IMG/VR virus record: IMGVR_UViG_3300027969_000005
Span: 1 to 59,387 of that record
From: a virus
Strand: one strand, 5' to 3'
Length of the DNA: 59,387 nt
Shown here: positions 3,042-18,970 of the stretch, piece after piece
Layout of the letters: the number at the start of each line of letters is the position of its first letter
Position numbering within the stretch: position 1 is the stretch's first letter
The notes under the pieces: generated by a model
The model's input: only the letters and a program-made list of their open reading frames with translations
The model's database searches: none
Told to the model about the DNA's origin: nothing
Program-made: the position numbers and the translations under genes

Positions 3042-3329
3042 TTAGTTGTAGTCCACTTGGACCTTGTGGCCCTTCGGAGTGGTGCCCTTCGCCGCAGAGG
3101 TGAAGGGATTCTGATCCGAAGATGCGCGACCGCCGCTCTTGCGGGCCTTGCGGCCTGCGTGAGGGGCGTCAGCAGCGCCATGGACCTTGCCCATAGCCTT
3201 GCCACCACGCTTGCGCTCCATGGCCTCGCCGGTCACCTTGTTGGTGCCAGTGTAGCTCATGGGCTTGGTGTTCATATCTTCAGCGGCGCTGTTGACGCCG
3301 CCCGTAGCGCGAGATTTACGTCCCTTCAT
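3042..3329 (-). CDS. Basic Gly-Gly motif protein, 95 aa
   Basis: A small Lys/Arg-rich protein with two copies of a basic Gly-Gly motif, RKRGGKAMGKV and ARKSGGRAS, separated by HAGRKARKSGG. The same peptide pattern recurs in the 520-aa protein at 8469-10031 (RGGKVMDKV with NAGRMARKSGG), so the two are related over this segment. Likely a virion or DNA-associated protein; no enzyme motif is visible. It precedes the terminator at 2991-3019. Confidence 0.65.
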   Translation of the reverse strand: MKGRKSRATGGVNSAAEDMNTKPMSYTGTNKVTGEAMERKRGGKAMGKVHGAADAPHAGRKARKSGGRASSDQNPFTSAAKGTTPKGHKVQVDYN

Positions 3330-4588: not shown

Positions 4589-5503
4589 TTACGAGGTTGG
4601 GAACGATCCGTAGATCGAACGCCAGTTATAGTAACCGAAGGAGTAGCGTTCGTAACCTTTCACCAATAGGTTGTCAGTCACGAAGTCAACTTGCATGTCG
4701 GTTTCGAAGCTAATGCGCTCCATGTAGGACAGACCATCGATGTTGGTCAGCAAGAACCAAGCGAACGACGAGGTCAAGAAGTCGTTGACCATGTAACCTT
4801 CTGGAAGGCCACCGGCTGCAGACATGATCGCGTTGACGTCGTTATCGGCAGTGCCGGGACGCAGTTCGGTCTTGGTCAGGCGGATTGCAACAGGCTCCAA
4901 CTGAGGCGGAATGATCAGCTTGCGGCCACGGCCAAAAACCTTAAGACCGGCTTGGTCCTTGAAGTTTGTCCGGATCGCGATCATTGCGTTCAGCAGGGTG
5001 GATTCGTTCAAGTCCACATCAGTGGTGGGCTTGTTAGCCACGGTGCCGCCGTCGATTGGGTGAGCTGTCGAGCACAGTGCAACGCCGTCACCGCCAACAG
5101 AGGCGTTGTAGGTTGTGGCGGTGTTCAAGACGTTCGCGCCGTAGATTTCCTTGGTCTGGCCGAAAGATTCGATCAGGCCGAGGTTCGACGGATGGAATTG
5201 CGTCTTGTACAGGTTGTCATCGATGGCCTTGCGAGTGATCGCATAGCCAAGGGCGATTTCCGAGTGCTCTTGGTTGTAGACAAAACGCTCACCGGCACTG
5301 TTGTCAAAGGAGGTCTGGCCACCTTCGGTCTTCAACTGAGCCAGACCGAGGTAGCGCATTTCAGCGGTACGCTCGAGAGCAAGCTTAGAATCGTGCTTCG
5401 TGAAGATCTTGTCGTACTGAGATGGGATCATCTCATACTTGCCTTCAATCCCCCGGAGACCGGGGAGCAGAAGGTCTTTAATTGCTGAAAGATTGACAGC
5501 CAT
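4589..5503 (-). CDS. Major capsid protein, Mu gpT-like
   Basis: A 304-residue protein that should form the HK97-fold head shell. The family signs are a central STAHPIDGGTVANKP segment (about residues 147-161), an ERFVYNQEHSEIALGYAITR region early on, and a C-terminal LLVKGYERYSFGYYNWRSIYG. Together these match Mu-like gpT major head subunits found in many podovirus-like phages. It sits between the decoration-type gene (5517-6107) and the 411-aa virion gene. Length is normal for the family and no protease is fused. Confidence 0.88.
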   Translation of the reverse strand: MAVNLSAIKDLLLPGLRGIEGKYEMIPSQYDKIFTKHDSKLALERTAEMRYLGLAQLKTEGGQTSFDNSAGERFVYNQEHSEIALGYAITRKAIDDNLYKTQFHPSNLGLIESFGQTKEIYGANVLNTATTYNASVGGDGVALCSTAHPIDGGTVANKPTTDVDLNESTLLNAMIAIRTNFKDQAGLKVFGRGRKLIIPPQLEPVAIRLTKTELRPGTADNDVNAIMSAAGGLPEGYMVNDFLTSSFAWFLLTNIDGLSYMERISFETDMQVDFVTDNLLVKGYERYSFGYYNWRSIYGSFPTS

Positions 5504-5516
5504 TGTCCTCTATCCC

Positions 5517-6107
5517 TTACGCGATGCCGGTCGGGCCAGCACCGTTGGTGCGGGTCGAGGCGTTGTTGAAGCCGACAATGACTTGGTTGTAGGCGGCGGT
5601 GATGTCTGTGCCGTTCTGGCCGGGAGGGCTAGAAACAAGGCCGACGACGCGGAATGGCAACGTGACCGTAGTCGCTGGGCTTTCGACAAACATGCCGGAA
5701 ATGCCAGTGGCGGTGTTGCCGGTGCCGACGTTCAACTGGATATACTCACCAATGTTGGCAAAGCCGATATTGGTAGCGCCAGCCTGAACGACGAATTGCG
5801 CGTTTGGATCATCGATCACATAGGCCTCAACGTCGCCAGTGGCATCCGAACCGGGCCAGTAGTTTGACCAGACGGTGCGCTTTTGCGAGGTAGAGGTGTA
5901 CTTGCAGCCGACAAAGATGCCTTCGACGCGGACGGTCGAGGCGGTCGCCTGAGCGATGTAGCCGGTGGTCAGCGGGATAACCGCGTCACCGCTGAAGATT
6001 GCTGTGCTGTTGCCGGAGGCAATGTAACGGACGTTCTGTTCAAAGGTGGGAACTGAGCCCGTACCCTTGACTTGTCGAAAACCGAAAGGCGAATTTGTAT
6101 TCGGCAT
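5517..6107 (-). CDS. Head decoration-type protein, 196 aa
   Basis: The start chosen is ATG 6107, which has AGGAG at 6120-6116; an in-frame ATG at 6137 lacks a site. The protein begins MPNTNSPFGFRQVKGTGSVP and continues with a YIASGNSTAIFSGDAVI segment. This opening is typical of small proteins encoded immediately upstream of gpT-like capsid genes. The body is beta-rich. A capsid-surface or stabilising role is inferred from family and position. Confidence 0.75.
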   Translation of the reverse strand: MPNTNSPFGFRQVKGTGSVPTFEQNVRYIASGNSTAIFSGDAVIPLTTGYIAQATASTVRVEGIFVGCKYTSTSQKRTVWSNYWPGSDATGDVEAYVIDDPNAQFVVQAGATNIGFANIGEYIQLNVGTGNTATGISGMFVESPATTVTLPFRVVGLVSSPPGQNGTDITAAYNQVIVGFNNASTRTNGAGPTGIA

Positions 6108-6235
6108 GACGGGTTCTCCTCTTGGGAAAGCCATCATCGCGCCACCGAGGGCGATTCAGAGCCGGGGATATGCAAAATCTCCACACCGGGGGAGAATGAC
6201 CTTAGAAATAAGCCGCTTTCTGAAAAAGCGCAAAC

Positions 6236-6269: not shown

Positions 6270-6902
6270 TTAGTCCTTAGGGATTGGAATTGCCTCGTAA
6301 GATTTGCTGACCTTGGCGAGGGAATTGCCCTTATTGTCTCGGCCAAAGTGCCCATCCGGAGCCGCATTAAGCTGCGCCTCTTTGTGGCGAACCTGATTGC
6401 GAGCGCGAAGCTTTTCGATCTCACGGGCCTCTTCAGTAAGCTCCATGGGACGTTCCATCAGGACCATGCCCTTGCGCTCGATCGTAGAGAACCGACCGCC
6501 GTCAGGCATGTAGGACGGGTGACGATCTGCGGGGACCGGCTCCCAGCCCTTGCGGGCCAAAGCCACCTGATAGGCCGGGTCCTCTTGGCCAAGGATGGTC
6601 TTGCGCTTCCACTCATACGACCAGCCAGCCGGGACGTCAGACTGGTTGATGTGGAAATCATCCGTACCCTCATCCATGTTGCCGCCGTTGTGATTGCGGA
6701 TTTCCGCAGCCCGGCGAGCAGCGCGGGTGCGGGGATCTTCTTCACGGGGCGCGGCGCGAAGGTCTTGGCGAAGCGACTGGCGCTCGACATACTCTTCGGG
6801 CTCCTGCTCCGTGACCATGGCTTCCTGCTCGATCTCTTGAGCAGCATCTTTCAAGGGGTTGTTCATGCGTGCGCGGGTGCGCTTTGGGGGCGACTGTTCC
6901 AT
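6270..6902 (-). CDS. Conserved phage protein (GWSYEWKR motif), 210 aa
   Basis: A hydrophilic, charged protein. Residues about 85-135 contain DDFHINQSDVPAGWSYEWKR and KGWEPVPADRHPSYMPDGG, a pairing seen in a family of small head-cluster proteins of tailed phages. The N-terminal third is acidic and helical, and the C-terminus ends SYEAIPIPKD. It is coupled to the scaffold gene (6902 shared junction). The role is unknown; an assembly factor or internal head protein would fit. Confidence 0.65.
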   Translation of the reverse strand: MEQSPPKRTRARMNNPLKDAAQEIEQEAMVTEQEPEEYVERQSLRQDLRAAPREEDPRTRAARRAAEIRNHNGGNMDEGTDDFHINQSDVPAGWSYEWKRKTILGQEDPAYQVALARKGWEPVPADRHPSYMPDGGRFSTIERKGMVLMERPMELTEEAREIEKLRARNQVRHKEAQLNAAPDGHFGRDNKGNSLAKVSKSYEAIPIPKD

Positions 6903-7801
6903 TAGTGGAGCTTCCCTTCCTTCTGGAGAGCCAATTTGTTGCGGGCATATTCCTGATCGGTCATGCCCATCATTTTTGCCATTTCGCGTTCATCAGAATT
7001 GAGACGAACGACATTGGGTCGGCTGCCCGTGCCCGTGCCGCTGCGCGAGACTGGCGCAGCAGGCGGTGCGGTTCGACGCTGAGTAACCTGAGCTGCAGAT
7101 GACGTAGGGTCATTGTCGAGGTTCACCTGTGTGGATGGCTTAATCCGCAGGGTGTTTTCAATCTCGGCAAAATACTCATCCGAATCGACCGGGATATCGT
7201 CGGCCACGGCCAGATTGTGCGCGGCCAGCATCTTTTGGAACAGGCGCTGGTCGGTGGCATATTCTGGGTGAGCACGCACCCAAGCCGCAGATCGAGGCGA
7301 AAGCTGCGCGGCCATAGCCTCGACAGGATCGGCCACATAGGGCTGCGGCGCGGCCTGCTTGGGCTGGGCTTCAAGCGACTGCTTGCCCTGCTCAAGCTGC
7401 AAGAGCTTCGCAGCATTGGTGGACATTTCCGACTGAAGGTCAGCGGCCCGATCGTAATCGCCAAGGCTCATGGCCTCGCGATAATTGGCCTTCAGGATTT
7501 CGTTATTCTGCGTGACCGTCGCGATCGCGTTGGTCACCAGATGGTAACTGTTTTCCTGAACCTCAGTTTGGGCAGTGAAGGCGGCCTGATTGGCCTCGTT
7601 CGCCCGGCGCTCAGCCTGAAGGCGGGCATCACGCTCACGCTCATACCGCTCCTTCATTTCCCTCAGGGCATCCTGAGGCTCAATGACCGGGCCAGATGGG
7701 GCGGCGTCCTCGACCTTTACGACCTCAACATCGCCCTCAGTCCCCTTAGGGGCCTCATCAATTTCAATATCGACATCAATTTGATCGTCTTTGACAGACA
7801 T
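6902..7801 (-). CDS. Capsid scaffolding protein (probable)
   Basis: A 299-residue, mostly helical, highly charged protein. The N-terminal 45 residues are very acidic. Residues 45-155 form a Gln/Glu/Ala-rich coiled coil, the middle is Ala/Pro-rich, and the C-terminus is a short basic helix (NKLALQKEGKLH). This layout, with length and position between portal and major capsid genes, is that of scaffolding proteins, whose basic C-terminal helix usually contacts the coat. No protease domain is visible. Assigned by organisation rather than by detailed similarity. Confidence 0.7.
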   Translation of the reverse strand: MSVKDDQIDVDIEIDEAPKGTEGDVEVVKVEDAAPSGPVIEPQDALREMKERYERERDARLQAERRANEANQAAFTAQTEVQENSYHLVTNAIATVTQNNEILKANYREAMSLGDYDRAADLQSEMSTNAAKLLQLEQGKQSLEAQPKQAAPQPYVADPVEAMAAQLSPRSAAWVRAHPEYATDQRLFQKMLAAHNLAVADDIPVDSDEYFAEIENTLRIKPSTQVNLDNDPTSSAAQVTQRRTAPPAAPVSRSGTGTGSRPNVVRLNSDEREMAKMMGMTDQEYARNKLALQKEGKLH

Positions 7802-7810
7802 CTTCTGCTC

Positions 7811-8203
7811 CTACCAGACCATGTCAGGGTGCGGAATGCGCCCACGGACATTGGTGTCATCCAAAATGCGGCACAGGACATTGTTAATCGTGATGCTCCA
7901 GCCATCCGATGGGCGGAAGACCAGCCAGTCATTCACGTCAATATCCATGTCCTTGAACCACTGATCGCTACTGTCAACGAATGCGGTCGGACCCTTTTTA
8001 ACCACAAGGCCGACCTTGCCTTGGATCTTGTCCTCATCAACCGTCTGAGAGGTCAAATAGATGCCGCTCTTGGTCTTTTGGGGGCGCACATAGACGGCCA
8101 CCACGACTTGATTGTTGAAGATTTCCAGATCAGAGATGTCCCCAAGCTCGGCCAGAAGAACGTCTTTAGGGTCGGTTTCGTGCGTCATAACCATATGAGG
8201 CAT
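7811..8203 (-). CDS. GroES-like co-chaperonin
   Basis: 130 residues; start at 8203 with AAGGAG 8 bases upstream. Residues 31-120 follow the Cpn10 fold order: NNQVVVAVYVRPQKTKSGIY, a mobile-loop equivalent (SGIYLTSQT, 46-53, compared with GGIVLT in GroES), GKVGLVVKKGPTAF for the KGEVVAVGxG strand, DVNDWLVFRPSDG for the VGDxVLF strand, and NVLCRILDDTNVRG for the C-terminal EYLILxExDILA strand. It is longer than GroES (about 97 aa) at both ends. By analogy with T4 gp31, it may replace host GroES on GroEL to fold the coat protein, which is encoded close by. The family call is firm, the role inferred. Confidence 0.82.
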   Translation of the reverse strand: MPHMVMTHETDPKDVLLAELGDISDLEIFNNQVVVAVYVRPQKTKSGIYLTSQTVDEDKIQGKVGLVVKKGPTAFVDSSDQWFKDMDIDVNDWLVFRPSDGWSITINNVLCRILDDTNVRGRIPHPDMVW

Positions 8204-8214
8204 ATGTTTTCTCC

Positions 8215-8412
8215 TTATCGATTTGAGATTTTAGTCTGCACTTCATCACAGTAATCGATCACAGAGCGCATGCCCTGCAATCTCCCTACATGCTGCTTGT
8301 ACTCGGCATAATCAACCGGTGTGCCGGTCGAAAGCACATCCTTGATGCGTTCAATTTCTTCCTCAAGGATTTTCTTAAGCTCGACCTCAAATAAAATATT
8401 GATATTCATCAT
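8215..8412 (-). CDS. Small helical protein, 65 aa
   Basis: An all-helical, charged small protein (LKKILEEEIERIKDVL; YAEYKQHVGRLQGMRSVIDY). The YKxxxGRLQGMxxVIDYCD pattern resembles short phage proteins found between head genes. It starts ATG-ATG (8412 or 8409), and a stable hairpin lies just upstream. Function unknown. Confidence 0.6.
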   Translation of the reverse strand: MMNINILFEVELKKILEEEIERIKDVLSTGTPVDYAEYKQHVGRLQGMRSVIDYCDEVQTKISNR

Positions 8413-8468: not shown

Positions 8469-10031
8469 TTACTGTTCCCCGTAAAGGTCAATTTTCTTTA
8501 ATCGACCTAGGCCGCCGCCCGCGCCAGTGGTGCCCTTGGCCATTGCGTGGGCCACGCGGCCACCGCTTTTGCGCGGCATGGGCATGCCCGGAGGCGGACC
8601 CATTGGCGGACCACCGGGGGGCGGACCCATGGGCGGCATCATGCCGGGAGGTGGGCCGCCGGGGGGCGGGCCGCCCATAGGCATACCCGGAGGTGGGCCA
8701 GCGGGCGCGACAGGAACCGGAACGCCGCGTGGCGGCATTGGCGGTGCGCCAGCGCCGGGCTGGGCCTGCTGGCCACCGGGGTGGCCGCCAATGATGATGT
8801 TAATGTTTGTTTTGCCCTTGCCTGTGCGACCGCCATGCTTGCGGGCCATACGGCCACCGGTCGGGCGCGTACCTTGGAAGACGCCGTCAGAGACGCTGCC
8901 GCCGTCTTTCTTTGCGCCAAGGAGCATAGCGGCGGGGGACAGGTACTTTGCGGCTTTGGGGTTTGCCGCAAGCGCCGCAGCGGGCGAAAGCATCTGAAGG
9001 ATGCCGCCGTCTGCCTTGTGTGCGCGACCGCCATCCTTGCGGGCCGTGTACCCCCCAGAGCACTTAGCGCAAGAGCAAGACCCGCCATGCTTCAGGCCCT
9101 TCATGGACTTCTGTCGGTCATGCTTTTCGTCCATCTCGGACTTTTCCCAGTCCGCATGAGACATCTTGTATTTAGCAGCTAGCTTCTTGTCTTGGCGCAT
9201 GTCCTCTTTCGATCCTTCGAAAGAGGCCTCTCCGCCCTTTTTGTAAGGGACGGGACGACTTGCAGCAGCGCCAGCACGACCGGCGGCAGCCGTAGCTGCA
9301 GCATTTTGAGCAGCGGCAGCCTTTGCCATGCGGATTTCTTCAGGCGATGGGCCTGATGCCACAGTCTTAACTGGGACTTTAGGCGGTACAGCCTTGTCGA
9401 GTTGAGCGGCAGTGCGTCCAAAGTCGCGACCCTCATTGTTCATGCTGCGGAGACGTGCGGCATTAAGCTCACCACCATCGGCACGCTTCTGACGACCACC
9501 AGCCTTATAGGCTTGGCGACCGTTGCCAGTAGGCTCACCGCCACCGCCGCCGCCCGAAGAGGAGCCAGAAGGAAGACCCGCCGCCTTGGCCGCCATAGAC
9601 GTAGCGCCATTAAACGCCATTCGTGAGGTTGGGACAAACGACTTGTCCGATGGCCCGGCAAGCCCGCCCTCAGACTTTTTAGGGGCACCGCCGCGCTTAA
9701 AGCCTCCGACATGCTTAACGCCGTCGCGCTTTTCGTTGGCTTCCTTTTGATTTCGGTTCATCAGGTCAATGGCGTAGGTGCTTCCACCAGACTTGCGAGC
9801 CATGCGGCCCGCGTTGGGGCTTGGGGCGCAGCCATCGACCTTGTCCATGACCTTGCCACCGCGCTTGAACTGGCGGCGGGAGATGGGGCGCATGCCTGTG
9901 GCCTTGTCAGCATCCAAAGGATCAGGCGTCACATACCCCGATGCATCAACCTTTTGGTTTGGATCGGTTCGAGTGATGCGTGCGATCTTGGCATGCATCG
10001 CCTTTCGGGCTGCTTTGGCGGCTTCAGACAT
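8469..10031 (-). CDS. Long repetitive Gly-Gly motif virion-cluster protein, 520 aa
   Basis: Start chosen at ATG 10031 (MSEAAKAARKAMHAKI), which has GGAGAA upstream; an in-frame GTG at 10043 is part of the same site. Residues 1-320 carry about ten short basic Gly-Gly motifs (FKRGGKV, ARKSGGS, FKRGGAP, YKKGGEA, LKHGGSC, ARKDGGR, ARKHGGR, PRKSGGR). There is one CSCAKC cluster near residue 320. Residues about 425-490 are a Pro/Gly/Met tract, and the end is basic. The composition suggests a disordered, nucleic-acid- or capsid-binding protein. No enzyme domain is visible. Confidence 0.65.
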   Translation of the reverse strand: MSEAAKAARKAMHAKIARITRTDPNQKVDASGYVTPDPLDADKATGMRPISRRQFKRGGKVMDKVDGCAPSPNAGRMARKSGGSTYAIDLMNRNQKEANEKRDGVKHVGGFKRGGAPKKSEGGLAGPSDKSFVPTSRMAFNGATSMAAKAAGLPSGSSSGGGGGGEPTGNGRQAYKAGGRQKRADGGELNAARLRSMNNEGRDFGRTAAQLDKAVPPKVPVKTVASGPSPEEIRMAKAAAAQNAAATAAAGRAGAAASRPVPYKKGGEASFEGSKEDMRQDKKLAAKYKMSHADWEKSEMDEKHDRQKSMKGLKHGGSCSCAKCSGGYTARKDGGRAHKADGGILQMLSPAAALAANPKAAKYLSPAAMLLGAKKDGGSVSDGVFQGTRPTGGRMARKHGGRTGKGKTNINIIIGGHPGGQQAQPGAGAPPMPPRGVPVPVAPAGPPPGMPMGGPPPGGPPPGMMPPMGPPPGGPPMGPPPGMPMPRKSGGRVAHAMAKGTTGAGGGLGRLKKIDLYGEQ

Positions 10032-10110
10032 GATGTTCTCCACAAAACCGGCGTCCCGGCATTAGTTGGCCACAAGATAGCACACCCTGTAAAAGCGGCG
10101 AGATGATTTT

Positions 10111-13100
10111 TTAGCGGCGCTTTTGGGCCCTCATGGCGACGCCAATGGCCTTGTTGACTGTGCCGCCCTTGTTCAGGCCGTAGTCTTTCTGCCGCTCAAG
10201 CCCCTGCTGAATGCTCTCAAGCATGCGATCATTGATCGGCTGGGTTTGCTTTTGTTCCTCAAAGAGCTTCCTAGCGGTTGATCGGCCCAAACTATCCGGC
10301 GAATAGGGGTGAATAATTTGACCGCTTTTTGTCGGGTTAGACAGCATCTGATCAATCACGTCAGGCATGGCATAGTGGCGCTGAACCAAGGGAACATCGC
10401 CCCAATATTCCCCCGGCGTGTCGGTGGAATATGTTGAGTGTTCAAAGGATTTAGGGTGAGTATCGGTGGCGTCAGGATTAAATTTTACAATTCGATGCCC
10501 AAGCATGTTTCCGGAAGCGCCCTTAACATCTGGATCGGAAATTGCAGCACGGGTTACGCCCACAGAGGGAAAGCCCTTTTTGGCCCACAAGGCAGTGTCC
10601 ATATATTTCACAATGTCACTGCGATGGCCGCCGGGAAGATCGCGGGCAAACTCACTTGCGGCCTTGGCGTTTTTGATTCCCGGCCAAGTCTCAAGATATT
10701 TGATAGCAGAAGCACGTTTGGCGACAGACTTATCGTCCGTGCCCTTTATGTGCTCACCGCGCATGATGCTCTCATCAAAAGCTTTTGCATCGGCTTTTGA
10801 GATATCTAGCGTCGGAATTTGAGCCATTAGGGCATCAAACATATTGTGCGATGAATCCACCGCCCTTGGACCCATTGGCCCAAAAGCACCGAAAACAGGA
10901 CCAGTTTTGGCCGCAGCCCGAATGACCTTTTGCAAAGCGGTCGCATGAGATGGGTTGTTTGCCCAGACCTGACCCTTGTTGGGCTCGCGCATGTAGGATG
11001 TGCCAGCATGCAGATCGACCGGCCAAGCAAGCTCCTTGCCGTTGATGTGCGTCAGGCGGCCAAGGGCAGATCGGTCACCGCCTAAATTCAAAAGCGTTCC
11101 GCCCTCTTTGTGCAGGGCCTCCCAGCTTTTATGCTGAATGTCCTTAGGGGTAACGCCGGGGATGTTCGCAACCGTTGCGGAAACGTCAGAAACGCCCATG
11201 GGCTGCTTGACGTTATAGAAGCTGCCGGTTCCAGTCTCGCCGCCCATTGGCGTCTTTAGGCTGCGGGCAATCATCAAAGCCGAATTGACGCTCTTAGGAT
11301 CGGCACTGAAGGGACTTGAGACCCTTGCCAAAGCCGCCCTGACCCTATCCATATCTGGCGATCCGCCCTTGCTAAAGCCAACCTCGCCACCCTTGGCATA
11401 TGCCTTAAACCCGCGCTTAAGGATGCTCTCGCGCATGCGAGGCGTGATGGTCAGGCCGGGCAGTGGTACGGAACCGTTTAACGAGGCAGGCACCCAATCA
11501 GCACGGCTCTCCGCCCCAACCTCATGATACCCCAAATGTGCTTCGGGATCGTGCTCACGAGCAAGCTTTATCAATCGGTTTGGCAAGAGCTTGTCGTAAT
11601 AGCCCTCCATGCCCTCTCCGCCAGTTTTTAAGTCGAGGTTAGATAGCTTTTTCCAATCACGATATGGCCCGTGAACCCGATCTCCGTGCCCGGCATGAAT
11701 CTTGTCCGCAATTTCTTTTCCAAAAATATCGCTTATTTCAGAATGAGTTTTTCCAGCGTGAGCCGACAACTCTTCACCGTTTGAATCATGAGCAACGACG
11801 GTGTGTGTGCCGTCCTCTTCAGGCTCATATTCAATATGGTCAATATGATGACTTAAGTCATATCTATTTGCCTGCTCTTTTCCGGGCGTCCAAACGAACT
11901 TATCGTAACCACCTTTAGCGGCCTCAATAAGTGCCCGCTTCAGCCCTAGATCGGTCCAGTTTTCGGTTTTATTAATATATGGGGCATCCGGCCCTATTCC
12001 GGCCACTCCTTTTTTTCGTGCATCCTGACCCCAATCGCTTTGCAACTCTTCAAGATGTAACACCTTTTGACCTTCAGGCGTAGATCGATCAGACATACGA
12101 AGATGTGCGACAACATTGGGTTCGTGCCAATGAGAAGATTGATAATTCCCCCCGAGAGCATCATTCTCAGGAAGATGCATTAGCACTTCTCGATAATTTC
12201 GTCTTGGCCCAGCCATTTGGTATTTGTGGTACATCGAGGCCCCGTGAGAGTTGCTAGGAAGCTCCTCTCTATCATCCGTAAAAAAGTCTTCCGGCAAATC
12301 CCAATCAGGACCATCCAGAATGCCAGTTTGGTTGGCCGGATTGGAGGCAACCTTATATTTGCCGTGTGGATGGTATGTCTTTTCAAGCAATTGCGGAATG
12401 CGATTGTGAAAATGATGAACCAAATCCTCTTTGGTTACGCTAGGTTGATTAGCAAACGCTTCATTTGCTCCCGACCATTTAAATTCATCGGCCTTTACGC
12501 CGGGCGATGTGGAAATGGCACGAAGCATGTCCTGAGGACGCCCCTTGGCCTGCTTTAGACTGTCGGCAGCCTTTGCCGCTTGGCTGTATAAGCCCGCATC
12601 GTTCAGATCATTGCCATCATCAACCTCGCCGCCCGCAGCCCGATGCACAGCCTGCCGATCGCGAATAACTTGCTCGGGGTGCTCAATGCCAATTGCCCCG
12701 CCCTCAGGCACCTGATGGCGCATAGCCTCGATCTGCTCAGCGGCGGTCGCATGCGTACCTGCAGCCGATACGACTTCGTGCCCTTCGTGGTCACGAGCGA
12801 CAACAGCCACGGGATGCTCGCCTTGCATGATACGCTTGGCGATGTCCTGCTTGGAATAGGGACCAAGGCCCAAAACCTCATTTAGGCGGTGTTGACGTGA
12901 GGCTTCGTGGATTTGCTCTTCGGTCACCAGCGCCGGGTTGAAGTGGAACGTGCCATCAGGCGTAATAGTCTCGCCAGCGCCGTCAGGAGCTTCAGGAGCG
13001 GGGTTTCCGCCCTTGGGGTACATGACAGCCTTCCGGCGGCCCTCCAGCAGTAGCTGGCGCTGGTGCTCAAGCGTCTTGTCGCTCTCGGGCAGGGTCTTAC

Positions 13101-13290
13101 CTTCGTCGTTGGTGTCGATCTCGCCGCCCTCGGAATACCCACCATTGGCGTATCCCCCGCTAGCCCGCTCGACCGGCGCACCATGTCCAAAGGTCGGAAT
13201 GTCTACCGACGCAAAACCCGGATCGACTTTAGATGCGATCCGCTTTGCAAGCATGATGGCCTGAACGGCTGAACTGGGGGCAAGTTTCAT
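10111..13290 (-). CDS. Polyvalent-type protein with LPD-like domains, about 1059 aa
   Basis: Start ATG 13290 overlaps the TGA of the portal gene. Residues about 1-240 contain Gly-Gly motifs (ERASGGYANGGY, HRAAGGEV) and a short region containing HATAAEQIEAMRH. Residues about 340-630 match the large polyvalent-protein-associated domain: NYREVLMHLP, SSHWHEPNVVAHLRM, EELQSDWGQ, a GYDKFVWTPGKEQANRYDLS segment and YYDKLLPNRL. The last 350 residues hold a second such region (DLPGGHRSDIVKYMD, GFPSVGVTRAAI, WGDVPLVQRHYAMPD). Such proteins are thought to be carried in the virion and injected. Activity is unknown. Confidence 0.75.
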   Translation of the reverse strand: MKLAPSSAVQAIMLAKRIASKVDPGFASVDIPTFGHGAPVERASGGYANGGYSEGGEIDTNDEGKTLPESDKTLEHQRQLLLEGRRKAVMYPKGGNPAPEAPDGAGETITPDGTFHFNPALVTEEQIHEASRQHRLNEVLGLGPYSKQDIAKRIMQGEHPVAVVARDHEGHEVVSAAGTHATAAEQIEAMRHQVPEGGAIGIEHPEQVIRDRQAVHRAAGGEVDDGNDLNDAGLYSQAAKAADSLKQAKGRPQDMLRAISTSPGVKADEFKWSGANEAFANQPSVTKEDLVHHFHNRIPQLLEKTYHPHGKYKVASNPANQTGILDGPDWDLPEDFFTDDREELPSNSHGASMYHKYQMAGPRRNYREVLMHLPENDALGGNYQSSHWHEPNVVAHLRMSDRSTPEGQKVLHLEELQSDWGQDARKKGVAGIGPDAPYINKTENWTDLGLKRALIEAAKGGYDKFVWTPGKEQANRYDLSHHIDHIEYEPEEDGTHTVVAHDSNGEELSAHAGKTHSEISDIFGKEIADKIHAGHGDRVHGPYRDWKKLSNLDLKTGGEGMEGYYDKLLPNRLIKLAREHDPEAHLGYHEVGAESRADWVPASLNGSVPLPGLTITPRMRESILKRGFKAYAKGGEVGFSKGGSPDMDRVRAALARVSSPFSADPKSVNSALMIARSLKTPMGGETGTGSFYNVKQPMGVSDVSATVANIPGVTPKDIQHKSWEALHKEGGTLLNLGGDRSALGRLTHINGKELAWPVDLHAGTSYMREPNKGQVWANNPSHATALQKVIRAAAKTGPVFGAFGPMGPRAVDSSHNMFDALMAQIPTLDISKADAKAFDESIMRGEHIKGTDDKSVAKRASAIKYLETWPGIKNAKAASEFARDLPGGHRSDIVKYMDTALWAKKGFPSVGVTRAAISDPDVKGASGNMLGHRIVKFNPDATDTHPKSFEHSTYSTDTPGEYWGDVPLVQRHYAMPDVIDQMLSNPTKSGQIIHPYSPDSLGRSTARKLFEEQKQTQPINDRMLESIQQGLERQKDYGLNKGGTVNKAIGVAMRAQKRR

Positions 13291-15620
13291 CACTCAGATC
13301 CTTCAGTGCCCAGTTCGCGTTCAATCGGGCCAAGCTGGCTCTCGGCAGCAGCCGCGCCTTCTGGATGCAGCATAATATCCCGCGCCAATTGAAGCAATTG
13401 AATGCGCTCACGGCTGTGGCGGTCGAAGTCACGGTTCTTGTCCTCAGCATCGCGCTCAGCATGCTTGACGGTAAGCTCCTCGCGGCGCGTCTGGGCATCC
13501 ATCATCTTGGCCTCTACGGCCATCAGATCGGCCTGCGTGTCCTGCTGCTGCATGCCCCCGCCAGCCAGACCCTCTTGGCGAGGCGCGAACGCACCGCTTT
13601 GGATCTTGGCATCGACCTCTTTCATTTTGGCCTGTGCGCTCGTGGTCTGAGCGTCGGCGGCCTGCTTCTTGACCTGAATTTCGGCCATGACCTTTTGCAG
13701 TTCTGGCGGCGGTGCGGCTTGAGCCGTCTTGGGCGCAAGGAACTGCTGCGGGTTGTTCCAGCCGATAGCCTGCAGGGCCGCAGTGTCGATCGCCAGAGGA
13801 TCGTACATTGACGGATTGGCGGCCTGAAGCTGCTTCAGAGCCATGATCTTCATCACACGCTGGCCGTGCGAGGCAGTGTTAGGGTCTGCCTGCGGCACCA
13901 GTTCGCAATTGTTGATGGCCTGCAGGAACATCTGCTCGTCCCATTGCGTGGCGGACGCATTCTTGCGCTGCCAGAAGCTCTCAGGATGCTCCTTAAAGCA
14001 CTCGACGAGCAACTGAAACTCCGCCGCCTGCGAGGCGTGGATGCGCTTGTGGACGGCGTTCATGACCTTAGTGGCCTGCTCGATCATCGCCAGCGTCGTT
14101 CCGACAGGCGCTTCAGCCTTGCCCTCACCGACCTGTTGCTCAGATGTGCCGCCGATTCGCATGCCGGTGTTGGCCATGTCGCCAACAAGCTGCATCAGCG
14201 CCTGCGAAGGTGGCTGATAGGGCAAAGGCATGATGGCCTGACTGATGGGTAGACCACCAGTCTTGACGAGAGCACCACCGCCGGGCGGCACGCGGAAGAT
14301 ATTGGTGTTCTGCCGCGCCCCAGTGTCAGCCATGAGGAAGCCGGGGAAGTTCGAATACATTCCGGCGTCCAGAAGCTCGCGCCATGCGGCTGTGATGGCA
14401 TTGGTCGTGTTCCCAAGGATGTGAAGCAGGCCGATGTCATAGAAGCCCATGCCCGGCACAAAGGTGTACTTCACAAACGTCGTGCGGGCATCTGGAAGGT
14501 CTTGCGTTTCCTCGTCATAGTTCCGAACGATCGACAAAATCTCACGAGACGTCAGATCGATCGTCACCCGGTAGGGGATTTCAAGCCCGCTGATCTTGCC
14601 CTTGTGCTTGTGCTCAAAGCCCGCAATATCAAGCTCGCAATAGCACTCGTAGATTTCCCGATCACGGTCCTCAGGGCTTCCGGCGTTGGCATCTAGGCCC
14701 TGCTGGTTTTTTTCTTCGCGCTGCAGGCTGTCCAGCTTAGGCGCATTGGGCATGCCCAGATCAATATCGCGATAGACGCCCAAGATCTGCAGGCGCTTAA
14801 CCGTCGAGGGGCGCATATAGACGCGGTGCGTCACGCGCTTGGCGTTAGACAGGTCTGTGGCGCTGTTATTGACGATCAAATCGTCGGCATCGACTGATTC
14901 GCTGACCGGACGATTGCGAAGAGGGCAGAAATACACCTTTTTGAACGACGTGCCGCCAAACCCCAGCATCAAGAGCATGCGGTCGGTGTCTGGGTAATAT
15001 TCCTTGGCCGTTGCAGTCAGATAGTGGTTTAGGTCGCGCTCAAGGGCGTTGGCAAGCTGGTCTTCGCGCAGTTCGGCGTTGTTATCGTCGTTGCGGATCT
15101 TTACCGGACCATCTGTGGGCAGCATTTCAGACCGTGCATTGGCCTGAAAGCGCAAGACGGCCTCCAAAAGCAGCGGGTGGCGCACTTGGCTCATGCCCTC
15201 GACGGGCGCACCCTCTGCAGAACCGCCAGACTTGCCAATCTCGATCTTTAGGCCAAGAAGCTTTACGCCCTGACTGCGCTCTTGGATCCACTCCTCGCGG
15301 CTTTTTAGGTCAGACTCAATGCCGCGAAGCAGTTCTGACGAAATGCGGCCCAACTCACCGTCTTCGATGTCCTCAACAAGGTTATCGAACCACTCCAGCG
15401 GCCCACGGTTAGCCGCCTCCCCCAAAGGCGACCCGTCAAGCGACACAGTGACCGATCCGTCGCCATGTTCGATCTTGATGATATTGCCCTTTTGGTCAAC
15501 GTCCGGCACATCTTCGGCCTCGTCGCCCATTTCGATGACGACATGGTCCATATCGGGCTCAGCAGCGGCCCCAAGGCCACCAAGGCGGATGTTCGGCGTC
15601 AAACCGGGTGTCATGGCCAT
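13290..15620 (-). CDS. Portal protein
   Basis: 776 residues, downstream of the terminase. A central segment (MSQVRHPLLLEAVLRFQANA, GFGGTSFKKVYFCPLRNRP, VTHRVYMRPS) and a C-terminal Gln/Ala-rich helical barrel (about 640-760) match P22-size portal proteins of podovirus-like phages. The portal forms the dodecameric channel at one head vertex through which terminase packages DNA. It overlaps the 76-aa gene by 10 bases and the polyvalent gene at TGATG. The acidic N-terminus (about residues 20-50) is a local extension. Confidence 0.82.
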   Translation of the reverse strand: MAMTPGLTPNIRLGGLGAAAEPDMDHVVIEMGDEAEDVPDVDQKGNIIKIEHGDGSVTVSLDGSPLGEAANRGPLEWFDNLVEDIEDGELGRISSELLRGIESDLKSREEWIQERSQGVKLLGLKIEIGKSGGSAEGAPVEGMSQVRHPLLLEAVLRFQANARSEMLPTDGPVKIRNDDNNAELREDQLANALERDLNHYLTATAKEYYPDTDRMLLMLGFGGTSFKKVYFCPLRNRPVSESVDADDLIVNNSATDLSNAKRVTHRVYMRPSTVKRLQILGVYRDIDLGMPNAPKLDSLQREEKNQQGLDANAGSPEDRDREIYECYCELDIAGFEHKHKGKISGLEIPYRVTIDLTSREILSIVRNYDEETQDLPDARTTFVKYTFVPGMGFYDIGLLHILGNTTNAITAAWRELLDAGMYSNFPGFLMADTGARQNTNIFRVPPGGGALVKTGGLPISQAIMPLPYQPPSQALMQLVGDMANTGMRIGGTSEQQVGEGKAEAPVGTTLAMIEQATKVMNAVHKRIHASQAAEFQLLVECFKEHPESFWQRKNASATQWDEQMFLQAINNCELVPQADPNTASHGQRVMKIMALKQLQAANPSMYDPLAIDTAALQAIGWNNPQQFLAPKTAQAAPPPELQKVMAEIQVKKQAADAQTTSAQAKMKEVDAKIQSGAFAPRQEGLAGGGMQQQDTQADLMAVEAKMMDAQTRREELTVKHAERDAEDKNRDFDRHSRERIQLLQLARDIMLHPEGAAAAESQLGPIERELGTEGSE

Positions 15621-15852: not shown

Positions 15853-18489
15853 CTATGCGGGGTAAAGCGGCTGCAATTGGCCGCCGGGATAGGTCTTCAT
15901 GGACTCGATCTCTTCAATTCGCTCAGCGCCACGGGTCAAAAGCCCAATATCACGCATGTGGCGCAAGGCCTGAGACACCGTATCGACCATATCGTCGTGC
16001 TTTCCCTTAGGGAATTGTCCGACTTGGGTGATTAAGGCTTCTGCCCACGACCGATCTGGCGCATAGATCATGCCCTCGGCAAACAGATGCTGGATCGAAT
16101 AGAGGCGAGACAGCTTATCTTGGCTCTTTGGGTCGTGAAGCTGCACGCCAAACCGCTCGTGGTTATACAGACGCCGGATTTCCTGCGCCACAGAGTGTCC
16201 GGCGGCCTTGTTCTCGATTAAAAGCACGTCAACCTTGAGCGACCGGCATGTCTTGGCGACCTTTTCGACCAGTTCGTGGATCTCCAAACGTGCCTCCCAA
16301 GCATGCATCAGCATGACCTTGGGCGCGGCGTCCATATAGGACCGGTCGATATACATTGGCCGACCATCAGCATCCAAAATGCGCGAGGCCTGCGCCGTCG
16401 TTTCAGACGTGAAGACGCCCCAGATGCTCAGGGCGCTAGGGTCATTCATTGTCTTGGTCGTATAGGCGGTGTCCAAAGACGCCACGATGTAATCCATCGG
16501 CGGGAAGGACGCATCCTCCCACAATTGCCACCAGTCTCGCTTGATGACACCGCCCCCGGCGGGCTCAGGACGCTGCTGTAGCTGACCGGCGGCGGAGAAC
16601 GGACCCAAGGCACGCTCAAGGCGCGACACCTCTGCATCGCCAAACCGCTCGGGCCAGAGCAGTTCGCCCGGTTCGCTTCGTGGATCCTTCCAGCCGATAC
16701 CAGATACAAATGACCGCTCAGGTTCATAACGCATGGGAAGCATCAGGTGCGTCCAGTCATCGCGCTCCTTCTCAAGGATGTGGCCGGTCAGGTCGTCTTC
16801 GGCCAGACGCTGCTGGATGATCACGAACGCGCCCGTCTTGGGATCGTTGAGACGGGTGCTCATGGTGCCGTCCCACCACTCCTTGGTGGTCTCGATCGTG
16901 GCCTCAGAGAAGGCCTCAGACGCAGCGTTGGGGTCATCGACGATTATGCAATTGTGGACGAGAACTCCATCAGCAAAGAAGTTGCTAAATTCCTCAACTT
17001 GTATGTCATAGACCCACTCCTCTCTTGTGCCCAAAGATGCAACAGAGGAGACACCGTCAAAGTTCCAACGTGATGTTTGGCATGACAAGGCTGGCAAAGA
17101 GTAATCAGGTTTTCCGGCTCGTTGTTTTGAGGGTTGTGATCCACATGATGGACATGAAGAATTGATCTTGCATGAGATCCCCGTGGAAGCTTCATCTCCG
17201 CCTCCCCGCAAGCTGTGCATTCGTGATCGTCCCGCTCCAAAACAACCCGCCTCATTAATTTGTAAAGATTCGAGTATGGGGAATTGTTCTTGAAGTTTGA
17301 GTTCAATCTCCCCCGCATTCTGTCCGAATGATCCGCATCCGCACAAGCTGGAGAACAATATATTGTCCATATCTTGCCGCTCGGCATAAGTTTCATTCCG
17401 AAAATCGTTCCACAGCGGGGGCAAGATCGTTTCTTTTGATTTTTCCACCGCCATATTGCCTTGCAAGCATCCGAACAACATTTCGAGTGTCGGGTCTTTC
17501 TTGGCTTTTCGCAAACGACGCATTGAGCCGTATTTTTTGTCGCATGATGTGCTGAGCAACATATTTTCGAGCAATAGGCATCCCGACTGTTTTGCTTGAG
17601 CGCCTTCCTTGCTTCGTATAGTTGTTTTTCCGTCCGCTTCCCGCAATTGTCGCAAATCAAATGAAGAACTATTGTCCTTCCCGTTTTCGACAATAAGCCC
17701 GTCTCCTCTCCCCATTTCAGAAGCAAAGATATATCCCCACCCCGGTGAGAAGATTGGATGGTCTCCAGTACAGATAAATCGATTTCCCGAAAATGAATCC
17801 AATTGATAGAGGTCATTTGACTTCCTACGGTGTGTGGCTAAAATTTTAGAACTTACCACCTTACCCCGTGAATGATCAAACGCCAATATAATGTCACCGA
17901 TTTTTAGAGATTCGATTGGAACATGGCCCGCAGGCGTTGAAACCATCGTTCCCGCCACAAAACAGCTTCCGCCCTCACCGGTCACCGCCGCGCCAACGGA
18001 CGTGATCAGGCGCTCACCGCCCTTGTCGTTGGAGAAACGGCTTTTGGTGTTTTGGTCGCTGTTGAGCGTAAACCGATCACCCCACATGGACTGATACCAC
18101 GGGCTCTCGATCAGGCGTCGGCACTTGACACTGTCTCGCAAGGTCAACTGCTGGGCATAGGACGCATGCAGGAACTGCACGCCCGGCCCAGAAGTGGGGC
18201 CGCGATAGCTTTGCGCCCATGTCCATGCTGGAAAAGCCACCGAAGTAATCGATGACTTTCCAAAACGCGGAGGCACATTAATTATTAGACGTCTAATTTC
18301 CCCATCAACAACGGCTTGCAGATGTTCCGCAATTGCCTCGATGGGCCATCCGTCAGTCCATGGTGAGCTATCGATGTAGCGCCACGCATGGGTCAAAAAC
18401 AGATAGAGGCTGTCTTCGTATTCCGCCCGATCCAAGTCGAGCAATTGTCTTTTGGCATCGACCGTCAGACCACCAAGATCAACCTTCAT
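15853..18489 (-). CDS. terL: Terminase large subunit interrupted by an intein
   Basis: Start ATG 18489 is preceded by GAGG; more distal starts lack a site. In this 878-aa precursor the ATPase Walker A motif is PPRFGKSS (73-80). Walker B, IIVDDP, begins immediately after C514. Nuclease acids are D673 (VASLDTAY), E759 (LLIEN) and D832/D833 (HDDMVD). An intein of 338 residues occupies C176-N513, leaving an extein of 540 residues, a normal terminase size. The protein cuts concatemers and pumps DNA into the head through the portal. It can work only after splicing restores the chain at GEGGS/CIIVDDP. It overlaps terS by 11 bases. Confidence 0.9.
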   Translation of the reverse strand: MKVDLGGLTVDAKRQLLDLDRAEYEDSLYLFLTHAWRYIDSSPWTDGWPIEAIAEHLQAVVDGEIRRLIINVPPRFGKSSITSVAFPAWTWAQSYRGPTSGPGVQFLHASYAQQLTLRDSVKCRRLIESPWYQSMWGDRFTLNSDQNTKSRFSNDKGGERLITSVGAAVTGEGGSCFVAGTMVSTPAGHVPIESLKIGDIILAFDHSRGKVVSSKILATHRRKSNDLYQLDSFSGNRFICTGDHPIFSPGWGYIFASEMGRGDGLIVENGKDNSSSFDLRQLREADGKTTIRSKEGAQAKQSGCLLLENMLLSTSCDKKYGSMRRLRKAKKDPTLEMLFGCLQGNMAVEKSKETILPPLWNDFRNETYAERQDMDNILFSSLCGCGSFGQNAGEIELKLQEQFPILESLQINEAGCFGAGRSRMHSLRGGGDEASTGISCKINSSCPSCGSQPSKQRAGKPDYSLPALSCQTSRWNFDGVSSVASLGTREEWVYDIQVEEFSNFFADGVLVHNCIIVDDPNAASEAFSEATIETTKEWWDGTMSTRLNDPKTGAFVIIQQRLAEDDLTGHILEKERDDWTHLMLPMRYEPERSFVSGIGWKDPRSEPGELLWPERFGDAEVSRLERALGPFSAAGQLQQRPEPAGGGVIKRDWWQLWEDASFPPMDYIVASLDTAYTTKTMNDPSALSIWGVFTSETTAQASRILDADGRPMYIDRSYMDAAPKVMLMHAWEARLEIHELVEKVAKTCRSLKVDVLLIENKAAGHSVAQEIRRLYNHERFGVQLHDPKSQDKLSRLYSIQHLFAEGMIYAPDRSWAEALITQVGQFPKGKHDDMVDTVSQALRHMRDIGLLTRGAERIEEIESMKTYPGGQLQPLYPA
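16944..17816 (-). CDS. HNH homing endonuclease nested out of frame in the intein
   Basis: 290 residues on the same strand as terL but in a different frame, starting inside the intein and ending 7 bases beyond it. The ATG at 17816 has AGGAAG 4 bases upstream; a TTG at 17693 after GGAGAGGAG is an alternative start. Three zinc-ribbon-like repeats follow: C55-x2-C58/C82-x3-C86, C99-x2-C102/C114-x3-C118, C132-x2-C135/C154-x3-C158. Then comes the HNH domain: CTAC (200-203), HVHHVDHNPQNNEPENL (221-237) and LCQPCHAKHH (240-249). It would cut intein-less terL copies to spread the element. Motifs are clear; expression is inferred. Confidence 0.8.
   Translation of the reverse strand: MTSINWIHFREIDLSVLETIQSSHRGGDISLLLKWGEETGLLSKTGRTIVLHLICDNCGKRTEKQLYEARKALKQNSRDAYCSKICCSAHHATKNTAQCVVCEKPRKTRHSKCCSDACKAIWRWKNQKKRSCPRCGTIFGMKLMPSGKIWTIYCSPACADADHSDRMRGRLNSNFKNNSPYSNLYKLMRRVVLERDDHECTACGEAEMKLPRGSHARSILHVHHVDHNPQNNEPENLITLCQPCHAKHHVGTLTVSPLLHLWAQERSGSMTYKLRNLATSLLMEFSSTIA
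16951..17964 (-). mobile_element. Class 1 intein in the terminase ATPase domain
   Basis: Block A begins at C176 (CFVAGTMVSTPAGHVPIESL). Block B is FICTGDHPI with T241 and H244. Block F/G is VYDIQVEEFSNFFADGVLVHN, ending in H512-N513 followed by C514. All residues for protein splicing are present, so the intein is probably active. Between blocks B and F (about residues 274-490 of the precursor) there is no LAGLIDADG or HNH motif in the terminase frame. Instead that DNA encodes an HNH protein in another frame. Confidence 0.88.
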
Positions 18490-18970
18490 TTGCCTCAAAT
18501 TCCTCTTCATCGGAGGTGTCTTTGTCGTATTGACCCTGCTTGTCGATCGCCTTTTCAAGGATCTCACGCAGTGAATCGCGCTGATCTTGGGTCAAATCGC
18601 GGCTATCGACCGTCTGCGTGCTGGTCTCGCTTTGGATCGGATTGCCGTCTGGGCCGGTAAGCTCAGTGCGGTTTGTCTCACGCCAGCCAAGCTGCGTCTT
18701 TGCCCAGAACATGGCTGCAGGGGCGCAGCTTTTGTGGTTGATGTCCGTGGCAATCTGGAAAAGGGTCGAGACGACCTTAAAGTTCTTCTCGCCCTTCGCC
18801 TTCTTAAGCTCAGCGGGATAGTATTTGACCAGCGTATCGACATGCAAACCCATCATGTCGGCCACCTGAAGGTTGGTCATACCCATGCCAGCAGCCTCGG
18901 CCACTCGCTCGCGGCTTTCGTCTGTGGCAACATGGGCTGGTCGTCCGCGTCGGCGTGGTGCGTCGGTCAT
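18479..18970 (-). CDS. terS: Terminase small subunit
   Basis: 163 residues. Residues about 15-55 form a helix-turn-helix (AAGMGMTNLQVADMMGLHVD), followed by a helical oligomerisation region with APAAMFWAKTQLGWRE (84-99), a hallmark of this phage protein family. The tail is acidic and Glu-rich. It should recognise the packaging site and recruit TerL, whose gene overlaps its last 11 bases. An AGGA site precedes the start. Confidence 0.85.
   Translation of the reverse strand: MTDAPRRRGRPAHVATDESRERVAEAAGMGMTNLQVADMMGLHVDTLVKYYPAELKKAKGEKNFKVVSTLFQIATDINHKSCAPAAMFWAKTQLGWRETNRTELTGPDGNPIQSETSTQTVDSRDLTQDQRDSLREILEKAIDKQGQYDKDTSDEEEFEANEG

What the first reader, a model, noticed from the sequence alone, without database searches (positions are those of the whole stretch)
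7811..8203. Phage-encoded GroES-like co-chaperonin in the head module
The 130-aa protein follows the Cpn10 strand order and has a mobile-loop equivalent SGIYLTSQT. It lies between scaffold-like and Gly-Gly protein genes, near the coat gene. T4 gp31 is the precedent for a phage GroES replacement needed to fold the coat protein. Its N- and C-terminal extensions are unlike cellular GroES.
Basis: partly seen in the sequence, partly recalled or inferred. Interest (0 to 1): 0.72.

Follow-up and report, generated by a model that had tools for sequence, protein, structure and literature searches.

The report
Phage-borne GroES co-chaperonin in head-gene cluster
This phage carries its own copy of the GroES "lid" of the bacterial protein-folding chamber, beside the genes for its shell; such genes are already known in related phages, so it is real and probably important to the phage but not surprising.

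Summary
The gene lies on the minus strand (8203 to 7811) and encodes a 130-aa protein with a good ribosome-binding site. It scores above Pfam's cut-off for Cpn10. PHROGs names it co-chaperonin GroES. Its predicted fold matches GroES/Cpn10 structures best. The mobile-loop motif (G + three hydrophobic residues) is kept in all 22 aligned relatives. The window has no GroEL (Cpn60).

The gene sits in a fixed block: portal ... 65-aa ORF, GroES, scaffold-like, 210-aa ORF, cement-like, major capsid. Asked from the capsid side, which is not biased towards GroES, all 40 capsid-gene contigs with enough upstream sequence, and 10 of 10 named phage genomes, carry a Cpn10; none of the 19 records tested carries Cpn60.

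The most likely role is a phage-supplied lid for host GroEL that folds the capsid protein or another head protein. The fold, motif and linkage are shown; the client and GroEL binding are inferred.

This is known biology: T4 gp31 is the precedent, and HTVC023P-type pelagiphages list co-chaperonin GroES among 13 core genes (PMC9599517). The gene is a new member of a known kind.

Noticed in passing and possibly more novel: an HNH endonuclease ORF out of frame inside the terminase intein.

The parts
7811..8203 (-). groES-like co-chaperonin gene, 130 aa
   Evidence: Pfam Cpn10 and PHROG 3188; Cpn10 fold
8042..8077 (-). mobile-loop equivalent, residues 43-54 KTKSGIYLTSQT; hydrophobic triad I48-Y49-L50 at 8054-8062
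   Evidence: aligned with E. coli GroES ETKSAGGIVLTGSA; G47 invariant and triad hydrophobic in 22/22 relatives; block pLDDT 60-62, the lowest inside the domain
7928..7993 (-). segment equivalent to the GroES roof hairpin, residues 71-92
   Evidence: length between flanking strands is at least that of E. coli GroES; no hairpin assigned in the model
8132..8203 (-). N-terminal extension, residues 1-24, with M-P-x-M-x-M-x-H at its start and a helix at 12-20
   Evidence: M1 P2 M4 H8 P12 invariant in 22 sequences; helix in the model
7814..7843 (-). C-terminal extension, residues 121-130, with conserved P126-D127 and V129-W130
   Evidence: alignment A1
8211..8216 (-). Shine-Dalgarno AAGGAG
   Evidence: sequence
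8215..8412 (-). 65-aa ORF directly upstream of groES, conserved in position, function unknown
   Evidence: homologues next to groES in related phages
6902..7801 (-). scaffold-like protein, 299 aa
   Evidence: position and homology across the block; the scaffold role is inferred
6270..6902 (-). 210-aa ORF of the block, function unknown
   Evidence: homologues in the same position
5517..6137 (-). 206-aa protein directly upstream of the capsid gene, cement-like by position only
   Evidence: homologues in the same position; the role is inferred
4589..5503 (-). major capsid protein, 304 aa
   Evidence: PHROG 371 E = 5.2e-10; 38-88% identical to capsid proteins of named phages
13290..15620 (-). portal protein
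   Evidence: SU10_portal and PHROG 1216

Best explanation
The gene encodes a phage GroES-type co-chaperonin. It probably assembles as a seven-fold lid, docks through its mobile loop on the apical domains of the host's GroEL, and provides a folding chamber suited to a phage head protein, most likely the major capsid protein encoded three genes downstream. Shown here: family, fold, mobile-loop motif, purifying selection, fixed linkage to the capsid gene, absence of a phage GroEL. Inferred: ring formation, binding to host GroEL, capsid protein as client.
For: Pfam Cpn10 above cut-off and PHROG 3188. AlphaFold2 model pLDDT 81; Foldseek's 25 matches at E <= 0.001 are all GroES/Cpn10 chains; VIA Z 9.4 to a GroEL-GroES complex lid and 7.2-7.6 to T4 gp31. 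Mobile-loop triad kept in 22/22. pN/pS 0.32. Capsid-first test: 40/40 contigs with >= 3.6 kb upstream carry it, 2.2-2.9 kb before the capsid gene, and 10/10 named genomes chosen by capsid similarity carry a Cpn10. Cpn60 absent from the window and from 19/19 related records, so a host GroEL is needed. Six-gene block syntenic from Pelagibacter, Roseobacter, Planktothrix and Alcaligenes phages to Rhizobium contigs. In phage B8b no virion peptides are listed for its GroES while neighbours have them (PMC4294664), as expected of a folding factor.
Against: No direct evidence of ring formation, GroEL binding or client. A gene next to a capsid gene could serve another protein of the block. Two of the ten capsid-chosen genomes have the Cpn10 elsewhere (W13, W14), so adjacency is not needed. 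Sequence similarity to solved GroES is too low for HMMER to see.
Confidence: 0.8

Rival explanations
1. It is a GroES that works with host GroEL, but its main client is another phage protein (scaffold-like, portal or tail protein), not the coat.
For: All genes of the block are linked to it about equally, so linkage does not single out the coat.
Against: The capsid protein is the most conserved member and has the best-known precedent (T4 gp31 with gp23, from general knowledge).
Confidence: 0.3
2. It is a Cpn10 fold recruited as a virion or assembly component that no longer binds GroEL.
For: The protein is divergent from cellular GroES (about 30 bits against 120-127 bits for host copies in the same genomes) and has conserved tails absent from cellular GroES.
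Against: The mobile-loop motif, which has no obvious role other than GroEL docking, is kept in 22/22. No virion peptides for the GroES of phage B8b.
Confidence: 0.08
3. It diverts or inhibits host GroEL to favour the phage or block host proteins, rather than folding a phage client.
For: A divergent lid could compete with host GroES; no test here excludes it.
Against: Fixed place in the late head block and strict pairing with one capsid lineage point to assembly.
Confidence: 0.05

Closest known systems
Co-chaperonin GroES of HTVC023P-type pelagiphages (HTVC023P, HTVC027P) and phages 023Pt_psg01, DSL-LC04, Pag-Yong1, CRP-901
   Same: Same gene order around it, homologous capsid protein (38-43% identity), Cpn10 family, no Cpn60. 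GroES is one of 13 core genes in the pelagiphage group (PMC9599517).
   Different: GroES only about 28-30% identical; different N-terminal extension; window clade has its own conserved M-P-x-M-x-M-x-H start and P-D-x-V-W end.
GroES of Caudoviricetes sp. MW202675 (Manatee Spring)
   Same: 65% identical over the full length, annotated co-chaperonin groeS, same block, capsid protein 88% identical.
   Different: Only sequence divergence.
Bacteriophage T4 gp31
   Same: Phage-encoded co-chaperonin; related fold (Z 7.2 for 1g31_A, 7.6 for the GroEL-bound form).
   Different: Only 7-8% identity; the window protein is nearer to GroES than to gp31 in fold scores and keeps a roof-length segment, which gp31 lacks (general knowledge of gp31).
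Cellular GroES/Cpn10
   Same: Fold (Foldseek E 3.5e-5; VIA Z 9.4) and mobile-loop motif.
   Different: About 20% identity; extra N-terminal 24 and C-terminal about 10 residues.
GroES of Pseudoalteromonas phage B8b
   Same: Phage GroES in a structural module (PMC4294664); its model is among BFVD matches.
   Different: Siphovirus with other head genes.

Membership tests
Cpn10/GroES co-chaperonin | Sequence matches the Cpn10 profile above the curated cut-off | tested here: met
   30.1 bits against 21.1
Cpn10/GroES co-chaperonin | Cpn10 beta-barrel fold | tested here: met
   Foldseek and VIA top matches are all GroES/Cpn10
Cpn10/GroES co-chaperonin | Flexible mobile loop with Gly and hydrophobic triad | tested here: met
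   KSGIYLT aligned with KSAGGIVLT; 22/22 keep it; low pLDDT there
Cpn10/GroES co-chaperonin | Roof beta-hairpin | tested here: inconclusive
   Segment of suitable length (residues 71-92) but no hairpin assigned in the monomer model
Cpn10/GroES co-chaperonin | Heptameric ring | not testable with these tools
   Only single chains can be predicted here
Cpn10/GroES co-chaperonin | Binds GroEL and supports folding | not testable with these tools
   Needs an experiment
Phage GroES of the HTVC023P-type head block | Lies between a small ORF and a scaffold-like gene, upstream of the homologous capsid gene | tested here: met
Phage GroES of the HTVC023P-type head block | No phage-encoded Cpn60 | tested here: met
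   (window is one record and may be incomplete)
T4 gp31 type | Needed to fold the major capsid protein | not testable with these tools
   Only linkage was tested

The most novel reading that the evidence does not exclude
The capsid protein of this widespread phage lineage cannot be folded by host GroEL-GroES, so the co-chaperonin is an obligatory, dedicated partner that has been inherited with the capsid gene across hosts; the conserved N- and C-terminal tails tune the chamber to that client.
Probability: 0.3. Interest if true: 0.4.

Novelty: new member of a known kind. Interest (0 to 1): 0.2.

Why it matters
It adds a case to the small set of phage co-chaperonins and gives a clean system for asking why some capsid proteins need a phage-made GroEL lid. 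The strict pairing of this capsid lineage with a Cpn10 (50 of 50 in the capsid-first tests) is a useful, testable regularity. It is not a surprise for a specialist.

Tried and rejected
Sequence search of solved structures found no GroES, with the single protein or the 22-sequence profile; the fold comparison was needed. Megablast of window 1-25000 against named phages gave no match, so no close named relative. The long plus-strand ORF 7217-8254 that runs antisense to groES was considered as a rival gene and rejected: that antisense frame is broken by stops in 9 of 18 relatives. A tree of 26 GroES sequences was poorly resolved with long branches; it supports a clade of 13 rows containing the window and the Rhizobium copies (98/84), and says nothing firm on the origin from cellular GroES. 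My extraction of host GroES sequences for that tree failed, so host divergence rests on the bit scores. Host prediction was not possible: genome bins holding relatives are assigned to many phyla, which looks like stray phage contigs in bins, except the Rhizobium contigs of 204-397 kb. Not done: background frequency of Cpn10 in unrelated phages.

Full report
What is there. The finding's coordinates are right, but the gene is on the minus strand: 8203 down to 7811, ATG start, 130 aa. An AAGGAG stands 7 nt before the start. The plus-strand frame read across the same bases is not the gene.

Family. The protein matches Pfam Cpn10 at 4.9e-7, 30.1 bits against a cut-off of 21.1, and PHROG 3188 'co-chaperonin GroES' at 1.1e-10. 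Single-sequence and profile searches of solved structures by sequence find no GroES, so divergence from cellular GroES is large. In the genomes that hold relatives, host GroES genes score about 120-127 bits against the Cpn10 model and the phage-like copies about 28-38 bits; this is not a recent copy of a host gene.

Fold. An AlphaFold2 model from 22 relatives has mean pLDDT 81 and pTM 0.76. All 25 Foldseek matches with E <= 0.001 in the PDB are GroES/Cpn10 chains. VIA-align gives Z 9.4 to the GroES lid of a GroEL-GroES complex, and Z 7.2-7.6 to T4 gp31, above the first unrelated rows at 5.9. The nearest viral models are nearly all named co-chaperonin GroES.

Mobile loop. KTKSGIYLTS aligns with ETKSAGGIVLTGS of E. 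coli GroES (the E. coli sequence was entered from general knowledge). Across 22 relatives, G47 is invariant and the three following positions are always hydrophobic or aromatic (IYL, LYI, LYL, IFL, ILL, IIL, IYI, FFL). The model is least confident there within the domain, as expected of a flexible loop. The roof segment is present in length but no hairpin is assigned in the monomer.

Extensions. Residues 1-24 and 121-130 exceed cellular GroES. M1, P2, M4, H8, P12, P126 and D127 are invariant in 22 sequences and V129 and W130 nearly so. They are specific to this clade: Rhizobium copies lack the M-P-x-M-x-M-x-H start, and the Alcaligenes phage copy begins near residue 3 of the Cpn10 domain. Their role is unknown.

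Surroundings. Order on the minus strand: terminase, portal, two long ORFs, 65-aa ORF, groES, scaffold-like 299 aa, 210 aa, 206 aa (cement-like by position), major capsid. The block from the 65-aa ORF to the capsid gene recurs, with detectable homology for most members, in MW202675, HTVC027P, DSL-LC04, Pag-Yong1 and 023Pt_psg01, and by annotation and position in HTVC023P, CRP-901, CRP-902, QDWS535 and three further Manatee Spring genomes. It also lies inside large Rhizobium contigs (204-397 kb), most simply read as prophages.

Test free of selection bias. Loci found with groES as query must contain groES, so I searched with the capsid protein instead. Of 77 new viral contigs, 40 have at least 3.6 kb upstream of the capsid gene; all 40 carry groES, and in all contigs where it is seen it ends 2.2-2.9 kb before the capsid gene. 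These contigs are related and not dereplicated, so 40 is not 40 independent events. Of 10 named phage genomes chosen by capsid similarity alone (W06-W15), 10 have a Cpn10, including Caulobacter phage GB2A, where it is annotated only as hypothetical. In two of them (W13, W14) it lies away from the block. No Cpn60 is found in the window or in 19 related records. Background frequency in unrelated phages was not measured.

Selection. Over 171 pairs of groES orthologues the median pN/pS is 0.32, with synonymous sites near saturation, so the protein is under constraint. Groes is less conserved (51-81% in capsid-chosen contigs) than the capsid protein (90-94%).

Mechanism. A phage with a GroES and no GroEL must use the host's GroEL. 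The late-gene position and strict pairing with one capsid lineage point to a head protein as client; the capsid protein is the best candidate by analogy with T4 gp31 and gp23 (general knowledge). [quoted passage not shown] In phage B8b the GroES row carries no virion peptide counts while neighbouring rows do (PMC4294664). Ring formation, GroEL binding and client identity remain inferred.

Known or new. PMC9599517 reports that 82 HTVC023P-type genomes, mean 58.8 kb, share 13 core genes including co-chaperonin GroES. The window, a 59.4-kb record, carries a diverged form of the same head block. The gene is therefore a new member of a known kind, and interest is low. The least-explained points are the conserved tails and the 65-aa ORF that always precedes groES.

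Noticed in passing
window 15853-18567 (-) with 16951-17964 and 16944-17816 (-): The terminase gene holds a 338-aa intein (Cys ... His-Asn, then Cys; Pfam Intein_splicing). An HNH endonuclease ORF of 290 aa lies almost wholly inside the intein-coding stretch in another frame (+1). Both frames are open and both are conserved in L024 and L029 (intein 38%, HNH 56% identity, same frame offset), so the intein's middle looks like a shadow reading of the nuclease gene. A hidden out-of-frame HNH in a phage insertion is reported (PMC11855218, abstract only), but there the element was not identified as an intein; this deserves its own study.
   Followed up: partly
window 8215-8412 (-): A 65-aa ORF always found just upstream of groES in related phages, with weak but detectable homology. 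Function unknown; a co-expressed partner of GroES is possible.
   Followed up: partly
window 8469-10043, 10111-13293 and 3042-3329 (-): Three proteins share repeated motifs of the kind RKxGGR / KxGG, with no Pfam match.
   Followed up: no
L136:3531-3872 (Alcaligenes phage QDWS535): Its Cpn10 has an altered mobile-loop region (KSAKALGIDLSASQ) without the usual GGI-hydrophobic motif, so it may dock on GroEL differently.
   Followed up: no
L137:6101-6532 (Caulobacter phage GB2A): Annotated hypothetical protein is a Cpn10 (37 bits, cut-off 21.1) in the groES position of the head block.
   Followed up: yes
L054, L055, L056: Rhizobium contigs of 204-397 kb carry the whole head block with a groES 42-48% identical, probably prophages; they offer a culturable route to test the gene.
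   Followed up: partly
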